DNA of 64,000 nt from Achromobacter deleyi (GTDB taxonomy: Bacteria > Pseudomonadota > Gammaproteobacteria > Burkholderiales > Burkholderiaceae_B): the NCBI RefSeq assembly GCF_016127315.1, contig NZ_CP065997.1:5084001-5148000 (forward strand), read 5' to 3'. The translations under genes and the position numbers were made by a program. The notes under the pieces are model-generated. The model did no database searches. It worked only from the letters and a program-made list of their open reading frames with translations, and was not told the origin of the DNA. How positions within the stretch are numbered: the stretch's first letter is position 1; each line of letters opens with the position of its first letter. This document shows, piece after piece, positions 26,064 through 64,000 of this stretch.

Positions 26064-26082
26064 GATAATGGTTATCATTACC
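26064..26082. promoter_or_regulatory. Fur box upstream of the siderophore-locus FecI
   Basis: GATAATGGTTATCATTACC matches the 19-bp Fur consensus at 16 positions, by direct comparison. It lies 35 bp upstream of the FecI-like start, which predicts iron repression of the sigma factor and hence of the receptor and cluster. Confidence 0.82.
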
Positions 26083-26117
26083 GTCGATTGTCCGGGTCAA
26101 CATTGCGGGAGACGTCC

Positions 26118-27659: not shown

Positions 27660-27715
27660 GTCGATACCTTTCCGGTTTCCGGTTTTGGCGTGTCCTTTCA
27701 ATCAAGAGGACTCAA

Positions 27716-30188: not shown

Positions 30189-30713
30189 ATGGTTACGAGC
30201 ACTGCGCCGACGATGGAAACACTGACCACGCTATACGAGGCGAACCGGCGGCAGCTGGTTCGCGCGGCGATGCGCATCCTCGATTCACGGGAGTTGGCTG
30301 ACGACGTGGTGCAGGATGCCTATGTCAAGCTGCTCGAGGGCGCGGTGCCGCAAGGCGTGCGCGAGCCGGCGGCCTATCTGTACCAGACCGTGCGCCATCT
30401 GGCGATCGATTGCCATCGGCGCCGCGCGCTGGAACAACGCCTTTTCGCGGACGAGGAGGCCGGCCGCCACGCGGTCTCGGCCTCGGTGGCCGAAGACGCC
30501 GCGGTGAGCAGCCAGGCGCTCAGGATGGCGACCACCGCGCTGACGCAGATGTCGGCCCGCACCCGCCGGGCGTTCGAACTGCATCGGTTCGAAGGCTGCA
30601 CGCAGCGCGACGTGGCGCGCGAACTGGGGGTCTCGACGGCGCTGGTCAATTTCATGATCCGCGATGCCCACCTGGCGCTCAGTTCCTGCCACGAATGCCT
30701 GCAGCCCGGTTGA
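30189..30713 (+). CDS. Second ECF sigma factor, no anti-sigma gene, probable regulator of the biosynthesis genes
   Basis: ECF sigma factor of 174 aa, distinct from the FecI copies. Region 2 includes LYEANRRQLVRAAMRILDSRELADDVVQDAYVKL; region 4 reads LTQMSARTRRAFELHRFEGC followed by TQRDVARELGVSTALVNFMIRDA. A strong ribosome site (GAGGAGG) precedes the ATG. No FecR-like gene adjoins it, as for PvdS/OrbS-type sigma factors that switch on siderophore NRPS genes under iron limitation; that role is inferred from family and position between the receptor and the MbtH gene. Confidence 0.85.
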   Translation: MVTSTAPTMETLTTLYEANRRQLVRAAMRILDSRELADDVVQDAYVKLLEGAVPQGVREPAAYLYQTVRHLAIDCHRRRALEQRLFADEEAGRHAVSASVAEDAAVSSQALRMATTALTQMSARTRRAFELHRFEGCTQRDVARELGVSTALVNFMIRDAHLALSSCHECLQPG

Positions 30714-30865: not shown

Positions 30866-31093
30866 ATGAACTGTTTCGACCGCGAGGACGCGGAGCTGCG
30901 CGTGTTGGTCAACGACGAAGACCAGTACTCCCTCTGGCCCGATTTCAAGCCGACCCCGGCGGGCTGGCGTGACACCGGCGTCAAGGGCGACAAGCAGACC
31001 TGCCTGGCGTTCGTGGAGCGCGTCTGGACCGACATGCGGCCGGCGTCGCTGCGCCGTTTCATGGAAAGCCAGACCGAGACCGCGCCGCAATGA
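30866..31093 (+). CDS. MbtH-like NRPS accessory protein
   Basis: A 75-aa MbtH-family protein that binds and activates or stabilises adenylation domains. The family signature NDEDQYSLWPDFKPTPAGW, followed by CLAFVERVWTDMRP, is intact. The ATG at 30866 gives the usual length; a longer frame upstream is not supported. It opens the biosynthetic operon and overlaps the thioesterase start by four bases. Confidence 0.95.
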   Translation: MNCFDREDAELRVLVNDEDQYSLWPDFKPTPAGWRDTGVKGDKQTCLAFVERVWTDMRPASLRRFMESQTETAPQ

Positions 31094-32084: not shown

Positions 32085-33101
32085 ATGGAACGATTCGAGC
32101 GTGTTGCACCGCCCGGCAGCGAGTTGCCGCTATTGTTGACGCCGGCTGCCGTGGGCGAGTCACTGTCCGCCGCCCAGGGCCGGCTGCGGGCGCAGATCGA
32201 TTCGGCGCTGCTGACCATCGGCGGCGTGCTGCTGCGAGGCTTCGAGGTGCCTTCGGTCGATGTATTCCGCGGCTTTGCCGCCGGCTTTGGCCATGAACTG
32301 CTGGCCTACGAGTTTGGCTCGACCCCGCGCAGCGCGGTCCAGTCAGGGGTGTACACCAGCACCGAATACCCCGCGCACCAGCACATCCCGCTGCACAACG
32401 AACAGGCCTACACCCGGGAATGGCCGATGCGCATCTGGTTCCACTGCGTGACCGCCGCGCAGTCGGGCGGGGAAACACCCATCGCGGACAGTCGCGCGGT
32501 CTATCGGCGGATGCCCGCGGCCATCCGTCGGCGCTTCGCGCGCGGCCTGGTCTACGTGCGCAATTTCGGCGATTTCGACCTGCCATGGCAGACGGTCTTC
32601 AATACCGACGACCGCGCCCGGGTCGAGGCCTATTGCCGCCAGGCCGGCATCGAATGGGAATGGCTGGAGGACGACGGCCTGCGCACGCGCCAGCGCTGCC
32701 AGGGCGTGGAGCGTCATCCGCACACCGGCGAGTTGGTGTGGTTCAACCAGGCGCATCTCTTCCACGTGTCGTCCCTGCAGGCCGACGTGCGCGAATCGCT
32801 GGAGGAGGCCTTCGGCATCGAGAACGTGCCGCGCAACGTGTACGACGCCGACGGCAGGACCATCGCCGACGAGGTCTTCGACGAGATCCGCGCGGTCCTT
32901 GACGAAGAGACGGTGCGCTTTGCCTGGCAGGCGGGCGACGTGATGATGCTGGACAACATGCTGGTGGCCCACGCCCGCACGCCGTTCGCCGGTCCGCGCA
33001 AGGTGGTGGTGGCCATGGCCGACCCCCATGGCAATGTCGAGGCGGCCGATCCCACGGCGCTGCGCCTGGCGGACGTCGACGACCTGTCGTGCGTGGGTTG
33101 A
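32085..33101 (+). CDS. Free-standing Fe(II)/2-oxoglutarate aspartyl beta-hydroxylase-like enzyme (SyrP/TauD type)
   Basis: Dioxygenase of 338 aa. The iron site is visible as His104 and Glu106 in PLHNEQAY, with distal His296 in NMLVAHARTPF; Arg305 in GPRKVVVAM would bind 2-oxoglutarate. SyrP-type enzymes hydroxylate the beta carbon of aspartate held on an NRPS carrier domain. In related siderophore pathways the stand-alone type works with an NRPS that carries an interface domain, and such a domain is found in the protein encoded at 37538. The ATG at 32085 matches the family start; the open frame upstream overlaps other genes. It ends 4 bp before the FAAL gene. Confidence 0.88.
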   Translation: MERFERVAPPGSELPLLLTPAAVGESLSAAQGRLRAQIDSALLTIGGVLLRGFEVPSVDVFRGFAAGFGHELLAYEFGSTPRSAVQSGVYTSTEYPAHQHIPLHNEQAYTREWPMRIWFHCVTAAQSGGETPIADSRAVYRRMPAAIRRRFARGLVYVRNFGDFDLPWQTVFNTDDRARVEAYCRQAGIEWEWLEDDGLRTRQRCQGVERHPHTGELVWFNQAHLFHVSSLQADVRESLEEAFGIENVPRNVYDADGRTIADEVFDEIRAVLDEETVRFAWQAGDVMMLDNMLVAHARTPFAGPRKVVVAMADPHGNVEAADPTALRLADVDDLSCVG

Positions 33102-33105
33102 TGTC

Positions 33106-37533
<4,428 letters not shown>

Positions 37534-37537
37534 GCGG

Positions 37538-40500
37538 ATGCAACCGAATCCCGTACTGCGGTCGGACAGCGCCCTGGCGCTGAGCATGGAACAGCGCGCG
37601 CACGAAGGCGCGGCGCAACCGGTGACATTGTTGGTTCGCCTGCCGGCGGGCTGGGACGAGCCGGCGTTACGCCGCGCGCACGCCACGGTCCTGGACCGGC
37701 TGCCGGCCGCGCGGCTGGTGTTCGGCGAGGTGGCGGGCTTTCACGGCCTGCGGCAGGCGAGCGGCGCCGCGCCGGAAGGTTCCTGGCGCACATACGAGGC
37801 GGATATGGCCGATCCGGACGCGCGTCCGCAAGCCTACGCAGCCTGGCAAGCCGACCTGGCGCTGGCGCTGCGTTCCGGTCGCCACGCCGGCCTGCATGCG
37901 GCCTGGTTCGATGCCCCCGAGGGAGGCTGGCTCGCGCTGGGGGCATCGCCGCTGGTGGCCGATGGCGGCTCGCTGCATGCCCTGGCCGAATCGCTGCTGG
38001 GCACGGCCCGCGGTCTCGCCACCGGGGACGACGAACCGTTCGACTACCTCAACTACGTGCTTTGGCGACAGGACATCGAGGCCGATGACGCCGCGCCGGC
38101 CCAGGCCTACTGGGCCGCCCATGCCACGGCAACGGCTGTCGTGCCGCGCCTGGCGTTGCGGCGCGACGAGGCTGTCGCGGACGAGGAATCCCCGGCCATT
38201 CAGGTTGCGCTGGATGAAGCGCTGGCGCGGGCCGTGGATGCGGTCGCGGCGCGGCTGGCGCGCTCGCACGAAGAAGTGCTGCATGCCGCATGGTTGGCAT
38301 TGCTCGGACGTCTGCAAGGGGATGGGCCGCTGGTATCGGGTTGGCAGCACGATTGCCGGGATGACTACGAGATGCTGGCGGGCGCGGTCGGAGCGTACGA
38401 GAAACGCCTGCCGCTGCATCTGTCCTGGAGCGGCGAACAGTCCTTCGAGGACTGGACACGGGCATTGGCGGATCTGCGGACGACGCATCGCGAAGTCCAG
38501 GAGCACTGGCACGGTTGCGGCCAGGCGGCGCACACGGCGTTCGGCTTTGCCAGCCGTCGTGCCGGCACAGGTTTTGAAGGGGTTACGGTGGCCGACGCGC
38601 CGCTGCCGACGGCATTCGAGCTGGGCTTGAGCGCCATTGGCGATGCCGCGGGACGGCCGGTTCAACTGTGGCTGAACGCTTGGCCCGGGGCGTACGAGGC
38701 CGCCGCGCTGCGGACACTGGCTGCCCACTATCGTGATGTCCTGACCGCCTTGGGCGCGGATCCGCGATTGCCGCTGGCGCGGGTATTGGAACCGGCCGAG
38801 CCTGCGTGCCTCCAAGGGCCGGCGCTCGATGTCGGCGCAAATTCGCTCTATGAACGCATTGCGCAATGGGCGCGCGATACCCCGCAGGCGCCGGCCGTGG
38901 TCGATGTCGAGCAAGGTATCACCCTGGATTACGCAACCTTGTTCGAGCGGGTGGAATCGTTGGCGGGCGCACTGCAGGCGCGCGGCGTGCGGCCGGGGAC
39001 GGTCGTGGCCTTGCACCTGCCGCGCAGTGCCACGCTGGTGGCGGCGATGCTGGCGGCATGGCGTTGCGGCGCGGCCTATCTTCCCCTGGATCCGGCCTGG
39101 CCGGCGGCCCGCACCGAGACCATCCTGCGTGACGCGAACGCCGCGGCCGTGGTGGCGCCGGCTGCCGGAACCTTGCGGTATCCCGTGCCGGCGGTGACGC
39201 CCGAGACGGACGCCACGCAGGCGCAAGCGGCCGCGTTCGACCCGGAGTCGGCGCGGGGCGGCCACGCCTACATCTTGTACACGTCGGGGTCGACGGGGAC
39301 GCCCAAAGGCGTGCCCGTCGGCCAGCGCCAGCTGCTCAATTACGTGGTGGCGGCGAGCCAGGCCATGGCGCTGGGGCGGTGGCGCCGCTGGGCCATGACG
39401 GCTACCATCGCCGCCGACCTCGGCAACACGGCGGTGTACGCCGCGTTGCTGCATGGCGCCGCGCTGGTGATCGCGCCGGAGCCGGCCCTGCACGACGCCA
39501 AGGCCTATGCCCGGTTCGTCCGGCAGCAGGGCATCGATGCCGTGAAAATGGTGCCTTCGCACCTGGCCGCATTGCTGGAGGACGAGGCGAGCGCCGTGCC
39601 GGCGTGCGTCGTGCTCGGTGGCGAGGCCACTTCGGGCGCGTTGTTGCGGCGCATCCTCGCCTTGGCGCCGGCGTGCGAAATCCATAACCACTATGGCCCG
39701 ACAGAGACCACGGTGGGGGTACTGGTGCACCGTGTCGCCGGCCCGGACGATACCCGGGGCGGCATCGTGCCGCTGAGCCAGCCGCTGGCCAATTGCCGCG
39801 TCTACCTGCTCGATGGCGAGGGCCGGCCGGCGCCGGTCGGGGCGCTGGGTGAACTGCATGTGGGCGGGGCCCAGGTCGTGGAGGGCTATCTCGGCCAGCC
39901 GGAACACCGCGCTTTCGTGGCCGATCCGCGGGTGCCGGGCCAACGCTGCTACCGCACGGGCGATCTGGCCTATTTGCTGCCCGGGGGCCGCTTGCGGCTG
40001 GCGGGGCGCGTCGATCACCAGTTGAAAGTGCGCGGATTCCGGGTCGAGCCCGCGGAGATCGAGGCGGCGTTGCTGGCGCAGCCCGGCGTCCTGCAGGCGG
40101 TGGTGCTTGCCCACGACGTCGCGCAGTCGGTGCAACTGGTCGCTTTCGTCGCGGCGCGGGTCGAACCGGCCGAGCTCGAGGCGCGACGCGAATCCCTGCT
40201 GCGGGCGTTGGCCGAGGCGCTGCCCGAGCCCATGGTGCCGGCCCGCATCGTTTTCCTGCCGGTGCTGCCTCGACTGGCCAACGGCAAGATCGACCGGCTG
40301 GCGCTGGCGCCGCAACTGGATCAGGCGGCCGAACCGCTCGACCTGCCGCGCGACGCGCTGGAGGCCGTCATCGCCGACAGCGTGGCGACCCTGCTGCAGC
40401 GCGACCGCATCGGCGTGCATGACGATTTCTTTGAACTGGGCGGGCATTCGCTGCTGGTCATCAAGCTGGTGACGCGCCTGCGCAAGCAATTGCGCGAGGA

Positions 40501-40678
40501 GGTGGAGCCGGGCCTGGTGTTCGATCATCCGACCGTGGCCCGGTTGGCCGCCGCGCTGCGCGCCCAGGCCGCCGATGCCGCCGCGCTGGATGAAGTGGCG
40601 GCGGCGCGTATGCAACTGGCGGCCCTGGCGCCGCAGGAACGGGCGGCCCTGGTCGCCACTCTCTCGGAGTCCGCATGA
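37538..40678 (+). CDS. NRPS: interface (inactive C-like) domain - A (Asp) - T
   Basis: Protein of 1046 aa. Residues about 1-430 look like a strongly diverged condensation domain; the place of HHxxxDG is taken by SPLVADG at 137-143, so peptide-bond formation is not expected. This fits the interface domain reported next to Asp-loading modules served by stand-alone beta-hydroxylases. The adenylation domain (phosphate loop YTSGSTGTPKG from residue 581) has pocket residues that read D-L-T-K-V-G-H-V-G, the aspartate code. The carrier Ser is 971 in LGGHSLLVIK. Starts 4 bases after the upstream stop and overlaps the next gene by four (ATGA). The missing condensation domain is supplied at the end of the preceding protein. 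Confidence 0.9.
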   Translation: MQPNPVLRSDSALALSMEQRAHEGAAQPVTLLVRLPAGWDEPALRRAHATVLDRLPAARLVFGEVAGFHGLRQASGAAPEGSWRTYEADMADPDARPQAYAAWQADLALALRSGRHAGLHAAWFDAPEGGWLALGASPLVADGGSLHALAESLLGTARGLATGDDEPFDYLNYVLWRQDIEADDAAPAQAYWAAHATATAVVPRLALRRDEAVADEESPAIQVALDEALARAVDAVAARLARSHEEVLHAAWLALLGRLQGDGPLVSGWQHDCRDDYEMLAGAVGAYEKRLPLHLSWSGEQSFEDWTRALADLRTTHREVQEHWHGCGQAAHTAFGFASRRAGTGFEGVTVADAPLPTAFELGLSAIGDAAGRPVQLWLNAWPGAYEAAALRTLAAHYRDVLTALGADPRLPLARVLEPAEPACLQGPALDVGANSLYERIAQWARDTPQAPAVVDVEQGITLDYATLFERVESLAGALQARGVRPGTVVALHLPRSATLVAAMLAAWRCGAAYLPLDPAWPAARTETILRDANAAAVVAPAAGTLRYPVPAVTPETDATQAQAAAFDPESARGGHAYILYTSGSTGTPKGVPVGQRQLLNYVVAASQAMALGRWRRWAMTATIAADLGNTAVYAALLHGAALVIAPEPALHDAKAYARFVRQQGIDAVKMVPSHLAALLEDEASAVPACVVLGGEATSGALLRRILALAPACEIHNHYGPTETTVGVLVHRVAGPDDTRGGIVPLSQPLANCRVYLLDGEGRPAPVGALGELHVGGAQVVEGYLGQPEHRAFVADPRVPGQRCYRTGDLAYLLPGGRLRLAGRVDHQLKVRGFRVEPAEIEAALLAQPGVLQAVVLAHDVAQSVQLVAFVAARVEPAELEARRESLLRALAEALPEPMVPARIVFLPVLPRLANGKIDRLALAPQLDQAAEPLDLPRDALEAVIADSVATLLQRDRIGVHDDFFELGGHSLLVIKLVTRLRKQLREEVEPGLVFDHPTVARLAAALRAQAADAAALDEVAAARMQLAALAPQERAALVATLSESA

Positions 40679-43600
40679 GTTCTGTCAATCCGTCCCTCCT
40701 GAAAGCGCTGCTCGACGAGGATCAGGACGATGCGCCTGCGGACCTGGACGTGCCCGCGTATCCGGACGACCTGGACGCGCCGTTGTCGTTCATGCAGGAA
40801 CAGTTGTGGTTCCTGGGCCGGCTGGACCCGACGTCGACCGCCTACCACCTGCCGCGGGCCGTGCGATTGAAGGGCCCGCTGGATGTCGCCGCGTTGCGCG
40901 AGGCGTTCGCGGCCCTGGTCGCGCGCCACGACATCCTGCGCACGACCTTCCATGACGACGACGGGCAGCCGCGCCAGCGCGTGCTGCCGGCCGGGCGCTT
41001 CGCGCTGCCGTTGCATGACCTGGGACCGCTCACCCCCGCGCTGCGGGAAGCCGCCGTGCGCGAAATGTGCGAGCGCCTGGCCGGACATGCCTTCCAGCTG
41101 GATCGCGAACCCGCGCTGGTCGCGTCGGTGGCGCGGCTGGGGCCGCGCGAGCACGTGCTGGCCTGGTGCATGCACCACATCGTCTCCGACGCCTGGTCCA
41201 ATCCCATCTTCATGCGCGACCTGGCGGACGCGTACCAGCAAGCGACGCAGGGCCAGCCCCCGGCGCTGCCGCCGTTGCGCCGCCAGTATCGTGATTTTGC
41301 CGCCTGGCAACGGGGCCAGGCCGAGGCCGGACGCTACGCGGCCAGGCTCGATCATTGGGATGCCCATCTTGGCGACGACCTGGTCGACCTGGACCTGCCG
41401 ACCGATCACGCCCGTCCCGCCGTGCTGGAGACGCGCGGCGCGACGCACTATTTCGAGGTGCCGGCCGGGCTGGCGGGCGAGATCAAGGCGCTGTGCGCGC
41501 AATTGCGCTGCACGCCTTTCGTGGCGCTGTTCGCGGCATGGCAGATCCTGCTGGCGCGCCTGAGCGGCCAGCGCGGTTTCGCCGTGGGCGTGCCCAGCGG
41601 CAATCGCACGCGGGCCGAATTGCAGGATGCGATCGGCTTTTTCGTCACCACGCAGGTGTTTCGCGTCGACGTGGCGGCGGATCAGACCTTGCGGCAGGTG
41701 TGCGAGCGCGTGCGCGCGGATGCGCGGGCCGCCCTGGCGCATGCCGATCTTCCCCTGGATCTGTTGATGGCGCGGCGCGGCGTGGCGCGCGATCCCGCGC
41801 GTACGCCGCTCTATCAAACCCTGTTTGGCCTCCAGGTTGGCAGCATCGGCCCCGGCCTGTCGCTGCCTGGCCTGGAAGTGGCGCGCGAGCCCATGCCGGA
41901 GGGCGGCGCGAAGATGGAGTGGTCGCTGGACATGCTGTGGGATGAGGCGAAGCAGGGGCCGGTGCTGCATGGACGTCTCGAGTTCAACACCGCGTTGTAT
42001 TCGGCCGACACGGCGGGTCGCATGGCCGAACGTTACCTGCGGGTGCTGCGCTGCCTGGCCAGCACGCCGGACACCCGCGTCGGCGCGCTCGATCTGGTGG
42101 CGCCGGACGAGCATGCCCGGCTCCAGGCCTGGAGCCAGGGCCCGCTGGGCGCCGCTTTCGACGAGCCGGTGCATGCGTGGATCGCCCGTCAGGCCGCGGC
42201 CACGCCCGCGGCCGTGGCGGTGGTCAGCGGCGCGGACAGCCTGACCTACGCGGAATTGATGGCGCGGGCCGACGATTGGGCCGCGGCGTTGCAGGCGTGC
42301 GAGGCCGGGCCGGACGCGCCGGTGGCCATCGCCATGGAACGCTCGCTGGAAATGGTGGTCGGGATCCTGGCCGTGCTGCGCGCCGGGGCGGCCTACGTGC
42401 CGCTGGATCTCGACTATCCGGCCGAGCGCCTGGGCTACACCCTGCGCAGCAGTGGCGCCCGCATCCTGCTGGTGGCGGGAGGCCTGCCCGAGGTATTGCG
42501 CCAGGCGGCGCCCGAACAGGTGCTGGACCTGCGCCAAGCTCCGCCCGCCGGCGGCGACTGGACGCCGGTTCCCATGCATGGGGAGCATATCGCCTACATC
42601 ATCTATACCTCGGGATCGACCGGCAGACCCAAGGGGGTGGCGAATCGGCACGCCGGGCTGGCGAACCGCCTGCGCTGGATGCAGGACGCCTACGGCCTGG
42701 AGCCGGGCGATGTGGTGCTGCAGAAGACGCCATTCGGCTTCGACGTGTCGGTCTGGGAATTCCTGTGGCCGCTCATGGTCGGCGCGCGCCTGGTCATGGC
42801 CGCGCCGGGCGACCACCGTGATCCGGAGAAGCTGGCGGATCTGATCGTGCGCCATGGCGTGACCACGCTGCACTTCGTGCCGTCGATGCTGCAGGCGTTC
42901 CTGGCCTGCGGCGAGGCGGCGCGCTGCGCGTCGCCGCGGCGCATCCTGTGCAGCGGCGAAGCCTTGCCCGCCGACGTGCGTGATGCCGCGCTGGAAGCCT
43001 GGCCCGGCGCGGGCCTGTACAACCTGTATGGGCCGACCGAGGCCGCGATCGACGTGACCGCGACGGCTTGCGCCCGGGAGGACGGCGGCCGCGTTCCGAT
43101 CGGCGCACCCATCCAGGCCACCCAGGCCTGGGTCCTGGATGCGGACCTGAACCTGACGCCGCCAGGCGCGGCGGGCGAACTGTATCTGGGCGGCGTGCAG
43201 CTGGCGCGCGGCTATGTGGGCGCGGCCGGTCTCACGGCGGACCGCTTCGTCGCGGACCCACGGGGCGACGGGGCGCGGCTGTACCGCACCGGCGACCTGG
43301 CCGCGTGGCGCGATGATGGCATGCTGCTGTACCTGGGGCGCACCGATCACCAGATCAAGATTCGCGGCTTCCGTGTCGAACTCGGCGAGATCGAGGCGCG
43401 TCTGGCCGCCCGGCCTGAAGTGGGCGCCGCCGTGGTGGTGGCCCAGTCCACGCCCCAGGGGGCAAGACTGGTGGCGTATGTGAGCGGCTCGGACGAGGCC
43501 GCCGGCGCGCCGGACGCGGCGGTATTGCGCGCCGCGCTGGGCATGGCGCTGCCGGACTACATGGTCCCGGCCGCGATCGTGGTGCTGCCGGCGCTGCCTC

Positions 43601-51500: not shown

Positions 51501-54500
51501 GCGCTGCCGGTCAACGCCAACGGCAAGCTGGACCGCCGCGCACTGCCGCAGGCGAGCTTCACCGCACAGCAAGCCTACGAGGCGCCGCAAGGCGAGGTCG
51601 AGGCGGCGCTGGCGGCGATCTGGTCGCAGGTGCTGGGCGCCGAGACCGTGGGCCGCCACGACAATTTCTTCGAACTGGGCGGCGACTCGATCCTGAGCCT
51701 GCAGATCGTGGCGCGGCTGCGCCAGGCGGGTTGGCGCATCACGCCGCGCCAGGTGTTCGAGCGCCAGACGGTGGCGCAACTGGCGGCGGTGGCCGAGGCG
51801 GCGCGGACTGACGCGACGCCGCAAGGGCCGGCCCGCGGCGAGGTGGCGCTGCTGCCGATCCAGGCGCAGTTCCTGGCGCAACCGCTGGCCACGCACGATC
51901 ACTGGAACCAGGCGGTGCTGCTGCACAGCGACGCGCCGGTCGATGGCGATGCGCTGGCCCGGGCGTTGGCCGCGCTGGTGGCGCACCATGACGCGTTGCG
52001 GCTGCGATTCAGCCGCGAGGGCGACGGTTGGCGCCAGCGCTATACAGATGTGGACCAAGGCGATGGCGAGGGGCTGCTGTGGCGGCGGCCGGCCGCCGAC
52101 CGCGCGCAGATCGAAGCGATCTGCGACAGCGCGCAACGCAGTCTGTCCATCGGCGAGGGCCCGCTGCTGCGTGGCGTGCTGATCGAGGTGGCCGATGGCT
52201 CCTGGCGCGTGCTGCTGGCGATCCACCATTTGGCGGTGGACGGGGTGTCGTGGCGCATCCTGCTGGAAGATCTGCGCACGGCCTATGGCCAACTGCTCGC
52301 CGGTGAGCCGCTCCGCCTGCCGGCGCGTACCAGCAGCTACGGCGACTGGTCGGGCCACCTGTGGCAGGCGCATCGCCCGAACGCGGCAGAGTCGGCCTAC
52401 TGGCGTTCGTTGCCGGCCGGCGACGCGCTGCCGGTGGATTATCCGCAAGGCGCCAACCGGGTGGGCGACCTTCGCCAGGCCGTGTTGGCGCTGGACGAAG
52501 CCACGACCCAGGCGCTGCTGCGCCAGGCGCCCGCGGCGTATCGCACGCAGGTCAACGATCTGCTGCTGGCGGGCCTGGTGCGGGCGCTGCGGCGCTGGGG
52601 CGGCATGACGCAGGTCCGGATCGACCTGGAAGGCCACGGCCGCGAGACCGGTGACACGGCGCTGGATCTGTCGCGCACGGTGGGTTGGTTCACCAGCGTG
52701 TATCCGGTGGCGCTGACCGCCGAGGACGACGACGCGGCGTTGATTACGGGGATCAAGGAATATCTGCGCGCCGTGCCGGGACGGGGACTGGGCCACGGCC
52801 TGCTCGATGCCCAGGGGGTGGCGCGATCTTCGATCCTGTTCAACTATCTGGGCCAGTTCGAGGAGACGGCCGCGGGGCAAGGCTGGCGCATCGCGGCCGA
52901 AGGCGTGGGCGCGGGCCAGCTGGAGACGGCGCCGGCCTCGCATGCATTGACGATCAACGGCCAGGTGTACGCAGGCACGCTGCGCCTGACGCTGGGCTAC
53001 AGCGGCGAACGCCACGACGCGGCGCGCATGCAGGCGCTGGCTGACGCCTATGCGCAGGCGCTGCGCGAGCTGGTGGCGCACTGCGCCAGCGGCGCGCAGG
53101 GCGTGACGCCGTCGGACTTCCCGCTGGCCGGGCTGGACCAGGCCGCGCTGGCGGCGCTGCCGATCGACGCGCCGGTCTCGCAATGGGAGGATCTCTACCC
53201 GGTCACGCCGATGCAGGCGGGCATGCTGTTCCACAGCGCCTGGGCGCAGAGCGAAGGCGAGGCGGGCGAGCCGGCCTACGTGAACCAGCTGTGCGTGGAC
53301 GTGCAGGGGCTGGACGAGGCGCGCTTCGAGGCGGCCTGGGCGGCGGCGCTGGCGCGCCACGAGGTACTGCGCACGGGCTTCGTGCAAGGCGCCGGCGCGC
53401 CGCTGCAATGGGTGGCGCGCGAGGTGGCCGTACCGTTCGAGCGGTGCGAACGGCTGGGCGCGGACGCGGCGCAACTGCAGGCGCTGGCGCGCCAGGCGCG
53501 GCGCGGTGGCTTCGACCTGTCGCGGCCGCCGCTGATGCGGCTGCTGCTGGTGCGCACGGGCGCGGACCGGCACCACTTCATCTGGACGCACCACCACCTG
53601 CTGCTCGATGGCTGGAGCGTGTCGCAGTTGCTGGGAGAGGTGCTGCGGGCCTACGAAGGGCAGGCAGTGACGCGCGGCACCGGCCGCTACCGGGATTACC
53701 TGGCCTGGCTGGGCCAGCGCGATGGCGCCGCGATGCAGGCGTACTGGCAAGGCGTGACCCGGATGCTGGACGAACCCACGCTGCTGGCGCCGGTTCTGCC
53801 GCATGGCGCGCAGGACGGCTCCGACTCCTTGTCGCCGCCACTCGATGCCAGCGTGACGCTGGACGAAACGCAAACCCGGCGCCTGACCGAGGCCGCGCGG
53901 CGTCATCGCATCACATTGAACACGTTGCTGCAGGCGGCCTGGTCGCGCGTACTGGCGCAGACCACCGGCCATGACACCGTGGCTTTCGGCGTGACCACGT
54001 CGGGGCGTCCGGACAGCCTGGCCGATGCCGGACGCATTCTCGGCCTGTTCATCAATACGGTGGCATTGGTCGTCCCGAGCGCCGCGGATCAGGAACTGGG
54101 TGAATGGCTGCGGGCCATCCAGGCGCAGAACCTGGCGTCGCGCGAAGCGGAGCATGTGCCGCTGGCCGATGTGCAACGCTGGGCCGGCCACAATGGCCGG
54201 GCGCTGTTCGATACGCTGCTGGTGTTCGAGAACTATCCCGTGGACGCGGTGTTGCGGGGTACCGGCGGCAGTGTGCGATTCGGTGAACTGACCACCGAAG
54301 AAGACACCAACTTTGCATTGACCGTGCTGGCGTCGGGTGATCGCTGCCTGAGCCTGCGCCTGCGCCGCGATCCGGCCCGGGTGCCGGCGGCCGCGATGCG
54401 GGCCTTGGCGCAACGGTTGCTGGCGCAGTTGATGGGGATCGCGACGCACGACGGCGCCGTCGGCGCGCTGGCGACGCCCATCGCCGCCGAAGACAGCGAG

Positions 54501-56396
54501 CGCCTGGCGCATTGGGAGCGGGCCGTGGCCTTGCCGGCGGCGGACGGTTCGGACGACCCGATGCCGGTGCGCATCGCGGCGCAGGCGCGGCGTACGCCGG
54601 GCCGGGTGGCGCTGCGGGTGGGCGAGACTGCCCTGAGCTATGCCGAGCTGGACGGCCGCGCCAACGCGCTGGCCTGGCAACTGCGGCAGGCCGGGGCGGG
54701 GCCGGAGCAGGTGGTGGGCATCCTGGCCGAGCGCTCGGTGGAGATGGTGCTGGCCCTGCTGGCGGTGCTCAAGGCAGGCGCGGCCTACGTGCCGCTGGAC
54801 CCGAACTATCCGGACGATCGGTTGGCCTACATGATGGCCGACAGCGGCCTGGGGCTGCTGCTGGCGCAGCCGGCGCTGGCCGCTCGCGCCGCCACGCTGG
54901 CGCCGACGGCGCGCGTGCTGGCGCTAGACGAGGCCCTGGTCGCCGGCTCGGCCGAGGCGCCGCCGGAGGTGGCGTGGCACCCGGAACAACTGGCCTACGT
55001 GATCTACACGTCGGGCTCGACCGGTCGGCCCAAGGGCGCGGCCAATCGGCATTCGGCCCTGGGCAATCGGCTGGCGTGGATGCAGCAGGCGTATGACCTG
55101 CAGGCCAGCGACACAGTGCTGCAGAAGACCCCGTTCAGCTTCGACGTATCGGTGTGGGAGTTCTTCTGGCCGCTGGCGCAGGGCGCGCAGTTGGTGCTGG
55201 CCGGGCCGGGCGAGCACCGCGAGCCTGAGCGGCTGGTGCAACTGATCGAGGCGTACGAGGTGAGTACGCTGCACTTCGTGCCGTCGATGCTGCATGCCTT
55301 CCTGAGTCATCTGGAGACGCAACCCGCGCCGCGCTGCGCCAGCCTGAAGCGCATCGTGTGCAGCGGCGAGGCGTTGAGCCCGGAACTGTTGCAGCGGGCG
55401 CTGCGGCGCCTGCCACAGGCCTCGGTAGAGAACCTGTACGGCCCGACGGAAGCGGCCATCGACGTGACGGCTTGGCACGGCGTACTGGATGAAGATGGCC
55501 AGGCACCGGCCATTGTTCCAATTGGTCGTCCTATCGCCGGCGTACAGACTCGGGTGCTGGATGGAAACCTGAACCCGGTACCGGTCGGTGTGGCCGGCGA
55601 ACTGTACCTGGGCGGCGCCGGACTGGGTCGAGGTTACCTGGGCCGGCCCGGTCTGACGGCCGACCGCTTCGTGGCCGATCCGGACGGTGGCGGTGCACGT
55701 TTGTACCGCACGGGCGACCTGGCGCGCTGGCGCGAAGATGGCGAACTGGAATACCTGGGCCGGCTGGACCACCAGGTCAAGATCCGCGGCCTGCGCATCG
55801 AGCTGGGCGAGATCGAGTCGGCGTTGCTGGCGCAGGATGGCGTGGAGCAGGCCGCGGTGCTGGCGCAGGACGGCCCCGCGGGTGCGCGGCTGGTGGCCTA
55901 CGTGGTGCCGGCCTCGGTGCCGGTCACCGCCTTGCGCGAGGCGCTGGCAGCACGCTTGCCGGATTACATGGTGCCAGCAGCCTTCGTGACGCTGGATGCG
56001 CTGCCGGTCAACGCCAACGGCAAGCTGGACCGCCGCGCACTGCCGCAGGCGAGCTTCACCGCACAGCAAGCCTACGAGGCGCCGCAAGGCGAGGTCGAAA
56101 CCGCGCTGGCGGCGATCTGGTCGCAGGTGCTGGGCGCCGAGACCGTGGGCCGCCACGACAATTTCTTCGAACTGGGCGGCGACTCGATCGCCGTGATGAC
56201 GGCCACCGCCATGTTGCGGCAGCGCCATGGCGTGGAATTGTCGCTGCGGGCGGTGTTCGACACCCCGACACTCGCGGCCATCGCGGCCCAACCTGAACTC
56301 GCGCGGCTGTGCAATGGCGCCGGCGCGACTGGGCAAGACGAGCGACAGGCGGAACTTGCCGCCATCGACTCGCTGTTGAACGAATTGGAGATTTGA
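48540..56396 (+). CDS. NRPS: C - A (Ser) - T - E - C - A (Ser) - T
   Basis: Dimodular synthetase of 2618 aa; its ATG shares one base with the upstream stop (TGATG). Condensation domain 1 has HHIVSDG at 179-185. Both A domains ([11 protein letters not shown] at 657 and 2156) show D-V-W-H-V-S-L-I-D, a serine code, and are nearly identical in sequence. T1 has Ser1050; the epimerisation domain has HHLAVDG at 1229-1235; condensation domain 2 is of the D-donor type ([14 protein letters not shown]) with HHLLLDG at 1685-1691; T2 has Ser2549. Predicted to add D-Ser then Ser. T2 reads GGDSIAVM although no epimerisation domain follows, which fits a recombination joint just after the carrier serine. Confidence 0.93.
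50052..51692 (+). repeat. Direct repeat R1, copy 1 (Ser A domain plus start of T)
   Basis: Nearly identical by eye, without indels, to 54549-56189 (offset 4497). It covers the adenylation domain and runs to the carrier-domain GGDSI, where similarity stops sharply. Confidence 0.85.
51201..52935 (+). repeat. Direct repeat R2, copy 1 (A C-terminal part, T, E)
   Basis: Nearly identical, without indels, to 62266-64000 (offset 11065). It covers the C-terminal adenylation subdomain, the carrier and most of the epimerisation domain; the repeat continues past the window edge. Confidence 0.85.
54549..56189 (+). repeat. Direct repeat R1, copy 2
   Basis: Second copy of the Ser adenylation region, in module 2 of the same synthetase. 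It ends at the codons for GGDSI of the second carrier domain. Confidence 0.85.
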
Positions 56397-56400
56397 GCAC

Positions 56401-59400
56401 ATGGGACTGGATCCTCGCACGCTGGCCGAACGCATCGCAAAACTGGATTCCGTGCAGCGCCAGGCGCTGTTGGACAGGTTGCTGGAGCAGGGTATCGACC
56501 CCGCATCGCTGCCGGTCGTGCCGTTCCCTGGCAGGCAAACCTACCCCCTTTCGCACGCCCAGAACGCGCTTTGGCTGACCTGGCGCATGGCGCCGGACTC
56601 CGCGGCCTATAACCTGTCCGGCACGCTGGCGTTGTCCGGCCCCCTGGATGTGGACGCGCTGCGCCGCGCGGCGCGGCGGCTGGCCGCGCGCCATGCCGTA
56701 CTGCGGACCGTCTTCGAGGCGAGCGATGACGCGGCGCCGGTGCAGCGGGTGCTGGCCGATCCGGAAGTCGAATGGCGCCAGGTATCGGTGCGGGAAGTCG
56801 ATGCGGAGCAGCGCATGGAAGCCGCCCGACGGGCCAGCGTGGCGATGGTGGAGGCCGCATTCGACCTGACGCATGCGCCGGCCTGGCGGTTGGGCGTGGT
56901 CAGCCTGGATGCGGAGCAACACTGGCTGACGCTGTGCGTGCATCACATCGTGGCCGATGGTTGGTCGCAGGCGATCCTGGTACGCGAGCTGGCGGCCCTC
57001 TACGACGAGGAGGCGACCGGCGTGGCCGCGGCGCTGGCGCCGCTGCCGGTACAGTTTGGCGACTATGCATCGTGGTTGCGTGAGTGGCATGCGCTGCGGC
57101 GCCTGCCGGCGCAGATGGAATACTGGAAGGCCCGCCTGGCCGGCTTGCCCGAGAACCTGCGGCTGCCGCTGGACCGGCCGCGTCCGGCGCACCGCGACGC
57201 GGTCGCCGGCTCGCACACGTTGCGGCTGGACGCCGCCGCCAGTGACGCCGTGCGCCAATTGGCGCGCGCCAGTGGCGCCTCGGTGTTCATGGTGATGCTG
57301 GCGGCATTCAAGTACACGCTGTCCCGCTATTGCGGCGCGGACGACGTCGTGGTGGGCACGCCGCTGGCCAATCGCGACCAGGCGGAAACACATGGCCTGA
57401 TCGGCTATTTCACCAACACCGCGGTGCTGCGCACCCGTGTGAACCGCGACGCGAGCCTGCGGGAACTGGTGGCTGACGTGCGCGATACGGTGCTGCAGGC
57501 GCAGTCCCATGCCGATTGCCCCTTCGATGTGCTGGTGTCCGAACTCGCCGGCGAGCGGGTGCCCGGCTTGAACCCGTTGTTCCAGGTCAAGTGCACGGAG
57601 CAGGCGCAGGGCGATGCCATTGGCGCCGGTTTCGGTTCCCTGGGGATGCGGCCCATGTCGCTGCACGCGCAACAGGCGCACTTCGACCTGAGCCTGGACG
57701 TGACCAATGGCCGCGATGCCATCCAGTGCCAGTTCGACTACGCCGCCGATGTGTTCGACGCCGCGACGATCATGGCGTTGGCCGAGGCGTTTGGCCAATG
57801 GCTGCGCCAAGGCGTGGCCGACGCGGATATCCCCCTGGTCGAGCTGCCGTTGGCGCAGGCCTCGGGCGAAGCGGGCGGCGAGACGGTGGCGTGGGCGGCG
57901 ACGGATGTGCTGACGCTGTGGGATGCCTGGGTCGCGCATGCGCCGACGGCGACCGCCGCGGTGCAGGAAGACCGCAGCCTGTCCCGCGAGGCGCTGGACG
58001 GCATCGCCACCACGCTGGCCGGCAGATTGCGCGGATTGGGCGTGTCTTCGGAGACGCGCGTCGCCGTGCACGCCGGACGCGGCCTGGCCTTCGTCGCCGG
58101 CCTGCTTGCCGTGTTGCGTGCAGGCGGCGCCTATGTGCCGCTGGATCCCGCGTTGCCCGAGGCGCGCCGCCGCCAGTTGATCGATGACAGCGGCGCGATT
58201 TGCGTGCTCAGCGAAACGGAATGGGAGCCGGCGGGCGTGCCTTGCCTGGATATCGACCTGAGCGCATGCGCGGCGGTCGAGAAGCCGGTGGCGGTGGCTG
58301 TCCATCCGGCTCAGACGGCCTATCTGATCTACACGTCGGGCTCGACAGGCCAGCCCAAGGGCGTGGCGGTCAGCCGGGGCGCGTTGGCCAACTATGTGCA
58401 GGGCGTGCTGGCGCGCCTGGACTTGCCGGGGACGGCGCGCAGCATGGCCATGGTTTCGACGGTTGCGGCCGACCTGGGGCACACCACCCTGTATGGCGCC
58501 CTGTGCGGCGGCTGCGCCTTGCATCTGATTGCGCCGGAGCGGGTCTTCGATCCGGACCGGTTCGCCGAATACATGCGGCAGCATGAGGTTGACGTGTTGA
58601 AGATCGTGCCCAGCCATCTGCAGGCGTTGCTGCAGGCCGCGCGGGCCGCGGACGCATTGCCGCGCCATACGCTGGTGTTGGGCGGCGAACGCACGCCGGG
58701 CGCGCTGCTGGATACCATCCGCGAACTGGCGCCGGCGTGCCGGATCTACAACCACTATGGCCCCACCGAAACGACGGTCGGCGCGCTGGTGCAAGCCGCG
58801 GCGGACACGGGCCGGGAAGAGGGCAGGAACCTGCCCATCGGGCGGCCGTTGCCCAATCTGCGCGCCTATGTCCTGGACGCCTATCTCGACCCGGCGCCAG
58901 CCGGCGCCGAGGGCGAACTGTACCTTGCCGGCGCCGGCCTGGCGCGCGGCTACCAGGGACGGCCGGGCCAGACGGCCGAACGTTTCGTGGCCAGCCCCTT
59001 CGGGACGGGTGAGCGGCTGTATCGCACCGGCGATCGCGTCCGTATGAATGCGCAGGGCGCCCTGGTCTACCTGGGGCGCGGCGACGACCAGGTCAAGGTG
59101 CGCGGCTACCGGGTCGAACCGGGCGAGATCGCCGCCCTGTTGCGCGCGCAGTCCGGCGTGGCGGCCGCGGCGGTGGTCGCGCGGCACGACGACGGGCGGA
59201 CAGCGCTGCACGCCTACGCGGTGGCGGCGGGCGAGGCGGTGGCGGATGCATTGGCGGTGCTCGCCGAAAAACTGCCGGATTACATGGTGCCGGCCACGCT
59301 GACCTGGCTGGACAGCCTGCCACTGACGGCCAACGGCAAGCTCGACATCCGTGCCTTGCCGGCGCCCGCCGTTCAGGCGCAGGCCGATGGCGAAACGCCG

Positions 59401-62400
59401 CAAGGCGAGGTCGAGGTGGCGTTGGCGGGCATCTGGCAGGAAGTGCTGGGCGTGCCGGCGGTCAAGCGGCAGGACAATTTCTTCCAGCTGGGTGGCGACT
59501 CCATCCTGAGCCTGAAGGTCATGGCGCGCGCGCGTCGCCTCAAGCTGCCGATCAAGCCCCGCCAGATCTTCGAATGCCAGACCCTGCAGGCGCTGGCCCG
59601 GGCGATCAGTCCCCAGGCGCAGGCCGAGCCGCCAGCCGCGGCCGCCGGCGGCCTGGCGGCCCCGGCGCAGGAACCCGTGGCAACGGTCGCGGCCCCTGCC
59701 CAACAGGACGAGCCGGCGCCGCAGCGCCCCGGGCATCGCATGGCGGTGCTCTCGCATGCGCAGCAGCGGCAATGGTTCCTGTGGCGCATGGATCCCCAGA
59801 GTTCGGCGTATCACATCAGCGGCGCGCTGCGCTTGTCGGGTGCGCTGGACGAGGCCGCGCTGGCCGCCGCGTTCGAGGCGCTGGTGGCGCGCCATGCCAG
59901 CCTGCGTACGCGATTTGTCGCGACCGACGACGGCCAGGCCGAGCCGGTGGTGCAGCCGCCGGCGCCTTTCACCTTGCTGCGTCAGGCCGCCAGCGATCCC
60001 ATGCGGGCGCAACGGGCGGTGCAGGCCTGGACGCAGGAACCCTTCGACCTGGAGGTGGGGCCGCTGCTGCGCGTGGGGTTGCTGCGCCAGGCGCAAGACG
60101 ATCATGTGCTGGTCGTGGTCATGCACCACATCATTTCCGACGGCTGGTCCATGCAGGTGATCGTGGAGGAGTTCGCGGAACTGTACCGGGCCCGCGTCGA
60201 GGGCCGGGCCGCCGCGCTCGCGGCCGTGGGCCTGGCCTATGAAGACTACGCGGCCTGGCAGCGCGGCTGGCTGGCGCGGGGCGAGGGCGAGCGCCAGCGC
60301 GAGTACTGGCTCCGCACCCTGGGCGGCGAGCAGCCGGTATTGCAATTGCCGACGGCGGCGCCGCGCCAGCCCAACGCTTCGTACCAGGCGGCGCGCCACA
60401 CCTTGTATTTGCCCGCCGGGCTCGTCACCCGGCTGCGCGCGACGGCGCAGGCTCGAAGCGCCACGCTCTTCAGCGCGCTGCTCGCGGGTTTCCAGGCCGT
60501 GCTGTACCGCTATAGTGGCCAGACGGACGTGCGCGTCGGCGTTCCCATCGCCAACCGCCATCTCGGCGACACCGAACGCGTGGTGGGTTTCTTCGTCAAT
60601 ACGCAGGTCCTGCGTGGGCGCTGCGATCCGGGCGAGACGCTGGGCGGGCTGCTGGCCCAGTCGCGCGACCGCGCGCGCGAGGCCCAGGAGCACCAGGATC
60701 TGCCCTTCGAGCAACTGGTCGATGCGCTGCAGCCCGGACGCGATGGCCATACGCCCTTGTTCCAGGTGCTCTTCAATCACCAGCGTCCCGACTACCGCGC
60801 CTTGCGCGACCTGGGCGGCTTGCGCACCAGTGACTACGGCATGCCCGAACAGCAGGCGCAGTTCGAGCTCAGTTGCAATACGGCGGAACTGCCGGACGGC
60901 CGGGTCCAGGTCGCGTTGTTGTATGCGCGCGAGCTGTTCGACCCGCGCTTGATCGTCCGTTTGGGAAGCCATCTCGAACGGATGCTGGAAGCGTTGATCG
61001 ACATGCCGGAGCAGCGCCTGGACCGCGTGGCGTTGCTTTCCGACGCCGAAGCGGCCCAGGTGATGGCATGGGGCCGCGCCACCGAGGCAGACCCGACCGC
61101 TGCCCATGACACGCTGCACGGCCTGATCGAAGCGCAGGCGCTGCGCCAGCCCGGCGCCATCGCCTTGAGCTGCGATGGCGCGCAGATGGACTATGCCGCG
61201 CTCAACGCGGCGGCAAACCGTATCGCGCATCGGCTGATTGCGCTGGGCGTGGGGCCGGAAACCAAAGTGGGCGTGGCCTTGCCGCGCTCCATGGCGCTGG
61301 TCCAGGCCCTGCTGGGCGTGTTGAAGGCGGGCGCGGCCTATGTGCCGCTGGATCCGGCCTATCCGGAGGACCGCCTGCGCTACATGGCCGCGGACAGCGG
61401 TTTGCGGGTGGTGCTGACGGGGCAGGCCCAGGCCGATGGCCTGGCGTGGCTGCGTGAAGACCTGCCCGGCGTCACGCTGGCGTGCGTCGACGGGGACGAG
61501 GTGTCGCGAGCGCCGGCGCACAATCCCGCGCTGCCCGTGCATACCGACAACCTTGCGTACGTCATCTACACATCGGGCTCGACTGGCCGGCCCAAGGGCG
61601 CACTGTTGGCGCATCGCCAGGTGTGCCGGCTGTTGTCGCGCACCGCGCATTGGTTCGGCTTTGGCCCCCAGGACACCTGGACGCTGTTCCATTCCTACGC
61701 TTTCGACTTCTCGGTGTGGGAGCTGTTCGGCGCGCTCTGCACCGGCGGGAAGCTGGTTGTGGTGCCCTACGAGCAGAGCCGTGAGCCGGAGGCGATGCTG
61801 GCGTTGCTGCGACGCGAGCAGGTCACCGTGTTGAACCAGACGCCGTCGGCGTTCCTGCAACTGATGCAGGTGCCCGGGCTGCTGGGCGGACCGACGCCCA
61901 CCGGCCTGGCGTTGCGGACCGTGATCTTTGGCGGCGAAGCCCTGGATCCGCGCAAATTGAAACCCTGGTTCGACCATGTCGGCGACGCAATGCCGGCCTT
62001 GGTCAATATGTATGGCATCACCGAGACCACGGTGCATGTCACGCACCGCCTGTTGCGGCACGACGATCTGGCGGCGGGCGGCAGCCCCATCGGGGTGGGC
62101 ATTCCCGATCTCGGCCTGCACGTCTACGACAACGAGCTCAACACCGTGCCGCCGGGTGTCAGCGGCGAGCTGTATGTCAGCGGGCCGGGCCTGGCGCGCG
62201 GCTATCTGGGCCGCGGCGGGCTGAGCGCCGAACGTTTCATCGCCGATCCGGCGGGCAGCGGCGGCCGTTTGTACCGCACGGGCGACCTGGCGCGCTGGCG
62301 CGAGGATGGCGAACTGGAGTACCTGGGACGCGCGGACCAGCAGGTCAAGATCCGCGGCTTCCGCATCGAGCTGGGCGAGATCGAGTCGGCGTTGCTAGCG

Positions 62401-64000
62401 CAGGACGGCGTGGAGCAGGCGGCGGTGCTGGCGCAGGACGGCCCCGCGGGCGCGCGGCTGGTGGCCTACGTAGTCCCGGCGAATCTGGCCGTCACCACGC
62501 TGCGCGAAGCGCTGGCGGCACGCTTGCCGGACTATATGGTGCCAGCAGCCTTCGTGACGCTGGATGCGCTGCCGGTCAACGCCAACGGCAAGCTGGACCG
62601 CCGCGCGTTGCCGCAGGCGAGCTTCACCGCACAGCAAGCCTACGAGGCGCCGCAAGGCGAGGTCGAGATCGCGCTGGCCGCGATCTGGTCGCGGGTGCTG
62701 GGTGCCGAGACCGTGGGCCGCCACGACAACTTCTTCGAGCTGGGCGGCGACTCGATCCTGAGCCTGCAGATCGTGGCGCGGCTGCGCCAGGCGGGTTGGC
62801 GCATCACGCCGCGCCAGGTGTTCGAGCGCCAGACGGTGGCGCAACTGGCGGCGGTGGCCGAGGCGGCGCGGGTCGAGGCGGTGGCGCAAGGGCCGGCCCG
62901 CGGCGAGGTAGCGCTGCTGCCGATCCAGGCGCAGTTCCTGGCGCAACCGCTGGCCACGCACGATCACTGGAACCAGGCGGTGCTGCTGCACAGTGACGCG
63001 CCGGTCGATGGCGATGCGCTGGCCCGGGCGTTGGCCGCGCTGGTGGCGCACCATGACGCGTTGCGGCTGCGATTCAGCCGCGAGGGCGACGGTTGGCGCC
63101 AGCGCTATACAGATGTGGACCAAGGCGATGGCGAGGGGCTGCTGTGGCGGCGGCCGGCCGCCGACCGCGCGCAGATCGAAGCGATCTGCGACAGCGCGCA
63201 ACGCAGTCTGTCCATCGGCGAGGGCCCGCTGCTGCGTGGCGTGCTGATCGAGGTGGCCGATGGCTCCTGGCGCGTGCTGCTGGCGATCCACCATTTGGCG
63301 GTGGACGGGGTGTCGTGGCGCATCCTGCTGGAAGATCTGCGCACGGCCTATGGCCAACTGCTCGCCGGTGAGCCGCTCCGCCTGCCGGCGCGTACCAGCA
63401 GCTACGGCGACTGGTCGGGCCACCTGTGGCAGGCGCATCGCCCGAACGCGGCAGAGTCGGCCTACTGGCGTTCGTTGCCGGCCGGCGACGCGCTGCCGGT
63501 GGATTATCCGCAAGGCGCCAACCGGGTGGGCGACCTTCGCCAGGCCGTGTTGGCGCTGGACGAAGCCACGACCCAGGCGCTGCTGCGCCAGGCGCCCGCG
63601 GCGTATCGCACGCAGGTCAACGATCTGCTGCTGGCGGGCCTGGTGCGGGCGCTGCGGCGCTGGGGCGGCATGACGCAGGTCCGGATCGACCTGGAAGGCC
63701 ACGGCCGCGAGACCGGTGACACGGCGCTGGATCTGTCGCGCACGGTGGGTTGGTTCACCAGCGTGTATCCGGTGGCGCTGACCGCCGAGGACGACGACGC
63801 GGCGTTGATTACGGGGATCAAGGAATATCTGCGCGCCGTGCCGGGACGGGGACTGGGCCACGGCCTGCTCGATGCCCAGGGGGTGGCGCGATCTTCGATC
63901 CTGTTCAACTATCTGGGCCAGTTCGAGGAGACGGCCGCGGGGCAAGGCTGGCGCATCGCGGCCGAAGGCGTGGGCGCGGGCCAGCTGGAGACGGCGCCGG
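56401..64000 (+). CDS. NRPS: C - A (Asp) - T - C - A (Thr) - T - E (continues beyond window)
   Basis: Open frame from the ATG at 56401 (4 bases after the previous stop) to the window edge, 2533 codons. Condensation domain 1: HHIVADG at 181-187. A1 ([11 protein letters not shown] at 644) gives D-L-T-K-V-G-H-V-G, aspartate, and has no interface domain before it. T1: Ser1034 in [11 protein letters not shown]. Condensation domain 2: HHIISDG at 1242-1248. A2 ([11 protein letters not shown] at 1723) gives D-F-W-N-I-G-M-V-H, the threonine code. T2: Ser2118. The epimerisation domain has HHLAVDG at 2297-2303 and is cut by the window edge. Predicted to add Asp then D-Thr; later modules and the release domain lie outside. 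Confidence 0.92.
62266..64000 (+). repeat. Direct repeat R2, copy 2
   Basis: Second copy of the A C-terminal/T/E block, here joined to a Thr-specific adenylation core. Only scattered single-base changes from 51201-52935 are visible, mostly around 62870-62910. Confidence 0.85.

What the first reader, a model, noticed from the sequence alone, without database searches (positions are those of the whole stretch)
32085..64000. Acylated beta-hydroxyaspartate lipopeptide siderophore assembly line with two different Asp hydroxylases
Seen: a FAAL-T-C starter with a fused 2OG dioxygenase, a second free-standing dioxygenase with the same HxE...H site, two Asp-coding modules, only one of which has an interface-like domain, and FecI/FecR/TonB receptor genes with a Fur box. 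Known: siderophore Asp beta-hydroxylases fall into stand-alone (interface-dependent) and fused types. Inference: the stand-alone enzyme serves the module at 37538 and the fused domain serves the Asp module at 56401, giving two hydroxyaspartates in a lipopeptide siderophore.
Basis: partly seen in the sequence, partly recalled or inferred. Interest (0 to 1): 0.85.

Follow-up and report, generated by a model that had tools for sequence, protein, structure and literature searches.

The report
Lipopeptide siderophore assembly line, potashchelin-like

Summary
The window carries an iron-regulated NRPS cluster whose last gene runs past the window to base 71493. It has a stand-alone TauD dioxygenase, a FAAL-T-C-TauD starter, and nine modules predicted to code Asp-Ser-Dab-Ser-Ser-Asp-Thr-Ser-OHOrn, with epimerases after residues 2, 4 and 7 and a terminal thioesterase. 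That is the potashchelin order except residue 3: the A3 code equals that of a solved PvdL domain, probably its Dab module, and a Dab transaminase gene is in the cluster. In relatives, the domain after the fused TauD lacks HHxxxD[G/A] in 41 of 41 fully readable cases of 48. Two Asp modules were found in 14 of 14 clusters with a stand-alone enzyme and in 1 of 10 without. So the fused enzyme most likely serves Asp1 and the stand-alone one Asp6, as published for potashchelin. Four of 43 genomes of the genus hold it. A new member of a known kind; its chemistry is untested.

The parts
26064..26082 (.). Fur box upstream of fecI
   Evidence: 3 mismatches (+) and 2 mismatches (-) to the 19-bp consensus; mean 0.00 in 100 shuffles
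26088..26630 (+). FecI-type ECF sigma factor
26627..27616 (+). FecR-type regulator
27698..30124 (+). TonB-dependent siderophore receptor (TIGR01783, over cut-off); the frame is open from 27698, the true start may lie later
30189..30713 (+). second ECF sigma factor
30866..31093 (+). MbtH-like protein
   Evidence: PF03621, 78 bits
31090..31830 (+). type II thioesterase
   Evidence: PF00975, 130 bits
31809..32023 (+). 71-codon ORF, probably the remnant of a phosphopantetheinyl transferase gene that is full length at this place in Achromobacter sp. MYb9
   Evidence: the relative has 244 aa with PF01648; this ORF matches no Pfam family, but its two ends resemble the relative's ends by eye
32085..33101 (+). 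stand-alone Fe(II)/2OG dioxygenase (TauD), predicted Asp beta-hydroxylase for module 6
33028..37533 (+). FAAL-T-C-TauD starter NRPS (likely start 33106); fused TauD about 36628-37479, predicted beta-hydroxylase for module 1
37538..40678 (+). module 1: interface-type domain (no HHxxxDG) - A(Asp, DLTKVGHVG) - T
40675..48540 (+). modules 2-3: C-A(Ser)-T-E, C-A(DIWELTADD, predicted Dab)-T
48540..56396 (+). modules 4-5: C-A(Ser)-T-E, C-A(Ser)-T
56401..64000 (+). start of the gene for modules 6-9: C-A(Asp)-T, C-A(Thr)-T-E, C-A(Ser)-T, C-A(DGEAVGGVT, predicted OH-Orn)-T-TE; it continues beyond the window to 71493

Best explanation
[quoted passage not shown] The FAAL loads a fatty acid and the starter C domain joins it to Asp1. 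The TauD domain fused to the starter protein hydroxylates Asp1 on the neighbouring carrier, positioned by the non-catalytic interface domain at the N-terminus of module 1 (expected L-threo). The stand-alone TauD hydroxylates Asp6 on a module with an ordinary C domain (expected L-erythro). Two beta-OH-Asp and one hydroxamate would give six donors for Fe(III); export would be by the ABC transporter, re-uptake by the TonB receptors and iron release by FhuF. Shown by sequence: domain order, codes, TauD groups, genomic pairing. Inferred: residue identities, stereochemistry, hydroxylation, iron binding, acyl chain, ring closure.
For: Domain order. Codes. Same residue order and same epimerised positions as potashchelin except residue 3 (PMC7100376 section 18). 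A3 code identical to that of a solved PvdL A domain, DIWELTADD; P. fulva PvdL is predicted to code Glu-D-Tyr-Dab (PMC12195549 passage). Dab transaminase family NF005393, 746 bits against cut-off 671; strong matches in 5 of 7 clusters with DIW[EQ]LTADD and 1 of 17 without. Domain after the fused TauD lacks HHxxxD[G/A] in 41 of 41 fully readable cases of 48. One interface-type domain in 23 of 24 clusters (328-617 bits; next best C domain 203). Asp-module census 14 of 14 against 1 of 10. TauD tree: stand-alone and fused rows split by one branch at 100/100 with 62 rows. A stand-alone enzyme (DlcD) is proposed to give (2S,3R) beta-OH-Asp in delftichelin (PMC13122642 passage). Ornithine monooxygenase, FhuF, exporter and FecCD genes. 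Fur box.
Against: No product is known here. Code-to-residue calls are predictions: DLTKVGHVGK is also listed for Asn domains, and DGEAVGGVT is one residue from a listed modified-Orn code, not identical. Mitsuaria (G004) has two Asp-coded modules with no stand-alone-type match in its genome, and Paraburkholderia (G031) has a fused-clade TauD with no interface domain in 60 kb and probably its own start codon. My A-domain detector missed at least one module (Thr7 of G068), so Asp counts are of modules detected. In two loci (L035, L036) the next NRPS frame starts 0.8-1.0 kb after the fused TauD, not at once. The tree with all 64 rows gave only 44/0 for the split. Halomonas CUBES01 has a DIWQLTADD module but no Dab transaminase in the 60 kb read, and the window's genome has a second transaminase over the TIGR00709 cut-off elsewhere. 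The GNAT acyltransferase is unexplained if the only OH-Orn is cyclised. The cluster's phosphopantetheinyl transferase gene is a remnant; two other ACPS-family matches exist in the genome. The peptide order assumes colinearity.
Confidence: 0.85

Rival explanations
1. One reading: the stand-alone enzyme uses the interface domain and serves the module at 37538, and the fused domain serves the Asp module at 56401.
For: Both enzymes are present and only one module has an interface domain, so either pairing is possible from the window alone.
Against: Clusters without a stand-alone enzyme keep the interface domain next to the fused TauD: 9 of the 10 fetched, and 14 of 14 fully readable among the 18 such genomes. 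The non-interface Asp module tracks the stand-alone enzyme, 14 of 14 against 1 of 10. The published assignment for potashchelin is the opposite.
Confidence: 0.05
2. Only one aspartate is hydroxylated in the real product, one TauD being inactive or acting on another residue.
For: Hydroxylation cannot be read from sequence; G004 shows that an Asp-coded module can exist without a second enzyme.
Against: Both TauDs keep HNE and the distal His and group with the TauDs of other two-Asp clusters.
Confidence: 0.08
3. Residue 3 is acylated N5-hydroxyornithine rather than Dab, giving a fourth iron-binding group.
For: An ornithine monooxygenase and a GNAT acyltransferase (PF13523) lie in the cluster.
Against: The A3 code equals that of a PvdL domain that is probably the Dab module, a Dab transaminase is in the cluster, and potashchelin's cluster also has an acyltransferase although its only OH-Orn is cyclic.
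Confidence: 0.06

Closest known systems
Potashchelin cluster ptcA-F, Halomonas sp. MG34 (PMC7100376; abstract, passages and section 18 seen)
   Same: Stand-alone TauD plus FAAL-ACP-C-TauD starter; nine modules with Asp at 1 and 6, Ser at 2, 4, 5 and 8, Thr at 7, OH-Orn with TE at 9; epimerised positions 2, 4 and 7; MbtH, type II TE, ornithine monooxygenase and acyltransferase genes.
   Different: Residue 3 is predicted Dab, not Gly; separate E domains instead of dual C domains; phosphopantetheinyl transferase reduced to a remnant; a Dab transaminase gene and FecI/FecR, which the section read does not mention for ptc. The ptc DNA itself was not compared.
Cupriachelin (Cupriavidus necator; PMC10484230, passages)
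   Different: From the passages seen it has Gly and an acylated OH-Orn, assigned D; its gene cluster was not compared here.
Formomarinobactin / marinobactin (PMC13037486, passages)
   Same: Lipopeptide siderophore with Asp(OH) and Dab; cluster with Dab transaminase, TauD, MbtH and FhuF genes.
   Different: Six-residue backbone with formyl- or acetyl-OH-Orn residues.
Pyoverdine synthetase PvdL
   Same: FAAL starter; one solved A domain has the same nine-residue code as A3.
   Different: Makes part of a chromophore siderophore; whether it has a TauD domain was not looked for.

Membership tests
Lipopeptide siderophores with fused and stand-alone Asp beta-hydroxylases (cupriachelin/potashchelin kind) | FAAL-carrier-C starter with C-terminal TauD | tested here: met
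Lipopeptide siderophores with fused and stand-alone Asp beta-hydroxylases (cupriachelin/potashchelin kind) | Non-catalytic interface domain before the Asp A domain next to the fused TauD | tested here: met
Lipopeptide siderophores with fused and stand-alone Asp beta-hydroxylases (cupriachelin/potashchelin kind) | Separate stand-alone TauD grouping with other stand-alone ones | tested here: met
   (100/100 with two long rows left out; 44/0 with all 64 rows)
Lipopeptide siderophores with fused and stand-alone Asp beta-hydroxylases (cupriachelin/potashchelin kind) | Two Asp-coded modules | tested here: met
   the code is also listed for Asn
Lipopeptide siderophores with fused and stand-alone Asp beta-hydroxylases (cupriachelin/potashchelin kind) | Iron regulation, ornithine N-hydroxylation and ferric-siderophore uptake genes | tested here: met
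[quoted passage not shown]
   needs culture and chemistry
Potashchelin itself | Glycine at residue 3 | tested here: not met
   A3 code DIWELTADD, as in a PvdL A domain
Potashchelin itself | No E domains, dual C domains instead (as reported) | tested here: not met
   three HHLxVDGVSW epimerase-type motifs; for the reported state

The most novel reading that the evidence does not exclude
The cluster makes a lipopeptide siderophore that I did not find described for Achromobacter: a potashchelin congener with a cationic Dab at position 3, whose module-1 protein is shared by four of 43 genomes of the genus. Its three serine modules (4, 5, 8) are kept near-identical within each genome by repeated gene conversion while diverging between species.
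Probability: 0.75. Interest if true: 0.35.

Novelty: new member of a known kind. Interest (0 to 1): 0.27.

Why it matters
It gives a concrete structure to look for in iron-starved Achromobacter. The census of 24 clusters adds comparative support for which hydroxylase serves which aspartate, where the potashchelin paper's abstract and introduction disagree on which enzyme makes which diastereomer. It adds nothing categorically new to siderophore biosynthesis.

Tried and rejected
Searching papers for the A3 code as text gave nothing; the solved-structure alignment gave a match instead. Reitz et al. 2019, where as I recall the interface domain and the two hydroxylase subtypes were defined, is not held, so its content is recalled only. 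In passages of PMC11574851 the name TbetaHAsp is used for the product of a gene bkaM with the R outcome, and in passages of PMC13122642 a stand-alone enzyme is said to give (2S,3R). Searches naming Achromobacter with lipopeptide siderophores, or with potashchelin, cupriachelin, taiwachelin or variochelin, listed no paper whose title or abstract start tells of such a product from Achromobacter; three listed papers hold the word Achromobacter once each and were not opened, and subscription journals are mostly not held. I considered a non-siderophore hydroxyaspartate lipopeptide of the antibiotic kind (recalled examples) and dropped it because of the Fur box, FecI/FecR, receptors, FhuF and ornithine monooxygenase. 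Structure prediction, fold search and the large protein search were not run.

Rows dropped: four short TauD matches under 260 residues from both trees (68 to 64), and two long rows more from the second (62). Of 48 fused cases, 6 had no readable downstream frame and one (L050) only a partial one. With the window, G064 and G068 that makes 24 clusters. Several clusters without the stand-alone enzyme (G006, G019, G024, G026, G032) may reach beyond the stretches fetched.

Full report
What is there. The window is bases 5084001-5148000 of a single-contig 6.99-Mb genome. One of the same-genus genomes, G058, has a contig of the same number and length (123107) and the match at the same place as the Achromobacter sp. 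MYb9 contig of L008, so I take the window's genus to be Achromobacter. I fetched the next 45 kb. The last NRPS gene, cut by the window end, runs from 56401 to 71493 and codes 5030 residues.

Genes. Reading from the Fur box at 26064-26082: FecI, FecR and a TonB siderophore receptor, a second ECF sigma factor, an MbtH-like protein and a type II thioesterase, the stand-alone TauD (ATG at 32085), then five NRPS genes. Beyond the window, on the minus strand unless said: an alpha/beta hydrolase, a second TonB receptor, a Dab transaminase (NF005393, 746 bits, cut-off 671), an ornithine N-monooxygenase (PF13434), a GNAT acyltransferase (PF13523), FhuF, a cyclic-peptide-type ABC exporter on the plus strand, and ATPase, FecCD and binding-protein genes. 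The genome has a second transaminase over the TIGR00709 cut-off elsewhere.

Assembly line. Domains by Pfam and motifs: FAAL-T-C-TauD | I-A1-T | C-A2-T-E-C-A3-T | C-A4-T-E-C-A5-T | C-A6-T-C-A7-T-E-C-A8-T-C-A9-T-TE. Codes: A1 and A6 DLTKVGHVG (with the final K listed for Asp and Asn domains in PMC12283262, passage); A2 DVWHLSLID and A4, A5, A8 DVWHVSLID (Ser, recalled code); A3 DIWELTADD; A7 DFWNIGMVH (Thr, recalled code); A9 DGEAVGGVT (one residue from DGEACGGVTK, listed among modified-Orn codes). The three E motifs put D residues at 2, 4 and 7. An earlier automatic pass read A9 as DGEVVGGVT because it took the wrong proline as anchor; the alignment-based pass gives A at that place.

Residue 3. 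No held paper has the A3 code as text. The best solved relative of A3 is PvdL (505 bits), whose aligned residues give the same nine letters. PvdL of P. fulva is predicted to make Glu-D-Tyr-Dab (PMC12195549 passage), and Dab is named among the pyoverdine NRPS substrates in a legend of PMC11855355. That the solved domain is the Dab module is my inference: about 870 residues precede it in the construct, and its code is neither a Glu nor a Tyr code as I recall them. In 24 clusters, a strong Dab transaminase match (630 bits or more) occurs in 5 of 7 with DIW[EQ]LTADD (misses: MYb9, whose 3' end is not in the contigs read, and Halomonas CUBES01) and in 1 of 17 without it (Caldimonas; a 120-bit match in Paraburkholderia was not counted).

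Which hydroxylase serves which aspartate. In the 80 related loci kept by a capped search, phmmer found 66 TauD matches of about 230 residues or more, plus two in the window. All 47 C-terminally fused ones matched the window's fused domain best. The 19 in short frames matched the window's stand-alone enzyme best, except five distant cyanobacterial ones at 41-48 bits. Of 48 fused cases including the window, 41 had a full N-terminal domain readable in the next A-domain-bearing frame, and none of the 41 contained HHxxxD[G/A]; one was partial and six had no readable frame. In L035 and L036 that next frame begins 0.8-1.0 kb downstream. A profile of the 41 domains found one strong match (328-617 bits) in each of 23 of 24 clusters, in the protein following the fused TauD, while other C domains reached at most 203 bits. 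The profile was built partly from the same sequences, so the gap, not the membership, is the evidence. The exception is Paraburkholderia G031.

Census. I searched 32 genomes for the stand-alone enzyme: 14 have a stand-alone-type match (58-77% identity) and 18 do not. I fetched 23 clusters and, with the window, coded the A domains of 24. In all 14 clusters with a stand-alone enzyme, the window included, two Asp-coded modules were detected (MYb9 across two contigs). In 13 of the 14 the non-interface one has an ordinary HHxxxD C domain in the same frame; in G068 a stop codon separates that C domain from the A domain. Of 10 clusters without it, nine have one Asp-coded module detected and one (Mitsuaria, G004) has two. 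Fisher's test gives 8e-6, but the clusters are related, some are incomplete, and the detector missed at least one module (Thr7 of G068), so the number overstates the case. The simplest reading is that the interface module belongs to the fused enzyme and the extra Asp module to the stand-alone one. The potashchelin paper reaches the same assignment from stereochemistry and a tree (section 18 read whole), though a sentence in its introduction reverses the diastereomers.

Tree. With 64 TauD rows the fused/stand-alone split needed one change but had 44/0 support, with very long rows flagged. Leaving out two of them gave 100/100. I had no characterised enzymes to anchor stereochemistry, so L-threo and L-erythro here rest on the papers.

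Comparison. The residue order equals potashchelin (beta-OH-Asp, Ser, Gly, Ser, Ser, beta-OH-Asp, Thr, Ser, cyclic OH-Orn) except position 3, and the D positions agree. The domain means differ: E domains here, dual C domains there. It is therefore not potashchelin, but is predicted to work the same way and belongs to the same kind.

Distribution. Six of 43 genomes of the genus matched the module-1 protein at E <= 1e-100: the window's own, three over nearly the full length at 53% identity (G058, G064, G068), and two at 38-39% over residues 97-1008 and 386-1024 only. The three close relatives have the same A3 code and the same hydroxylase pair.

Verdict. Observation confirmed, interpretation half right, chemistry predictable by analogy; a new member of a known kind.

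Noticed in passing
window 48540-64000 and on to 71493 (A4, A5, A8), and the same modules in G064 and G068: The A domains of Ser modules 4, 5 and 8 are 94-96% identical within this genome but only 66-71% identical to their counterparts in two congeners, which are 92-97% alike within each genome and 85-86% between them. Six consecutive 300-base steps of modules 5 and 8 are 98-100% identical; other A domains are 62-76% identical between this genome and G064. This looks like repeated intra-cluster gene conversion.
   Followed up: partly
window 31809-32023: A 71-codon ORF lies where Achromobacter sp. MYb9 has a 244-aa phosphopantetheinyl transferase; the window's genome has two ACPS-family matches elsewhere.
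   Followed up: partly
L097 (genome G068), last NRPS gene: In one congener the last NRPS frame is interrupted by a single stop codon between the C and A domains of module 6; it could be a real lesion or a sequencing error.
   Followed up: no
L057 and L151-L153 (genome G031, Paraburkholderia): A fused-clade TauD appears to be its own gene after an NRPS ending in a C domain, with no interface domain found in the 60 kb read: an exception to the pairing rule.
   Followed up: partly
L054 (Pseudomonas sp. UBA4617): A third, distant TauD (43% identity) lies near a module with code DSALIAEVW, a His code that PMC12283262 says can take a beta-OH group (passage).
   Followed up: no
window 16862-25844: The upstream flank holds ordinary metabolic and transport genes: AMP-binding enzyme, MFS transporter, thiolase-like protein and a family-3 solute-binding ABC transporter.
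   Followed up: no
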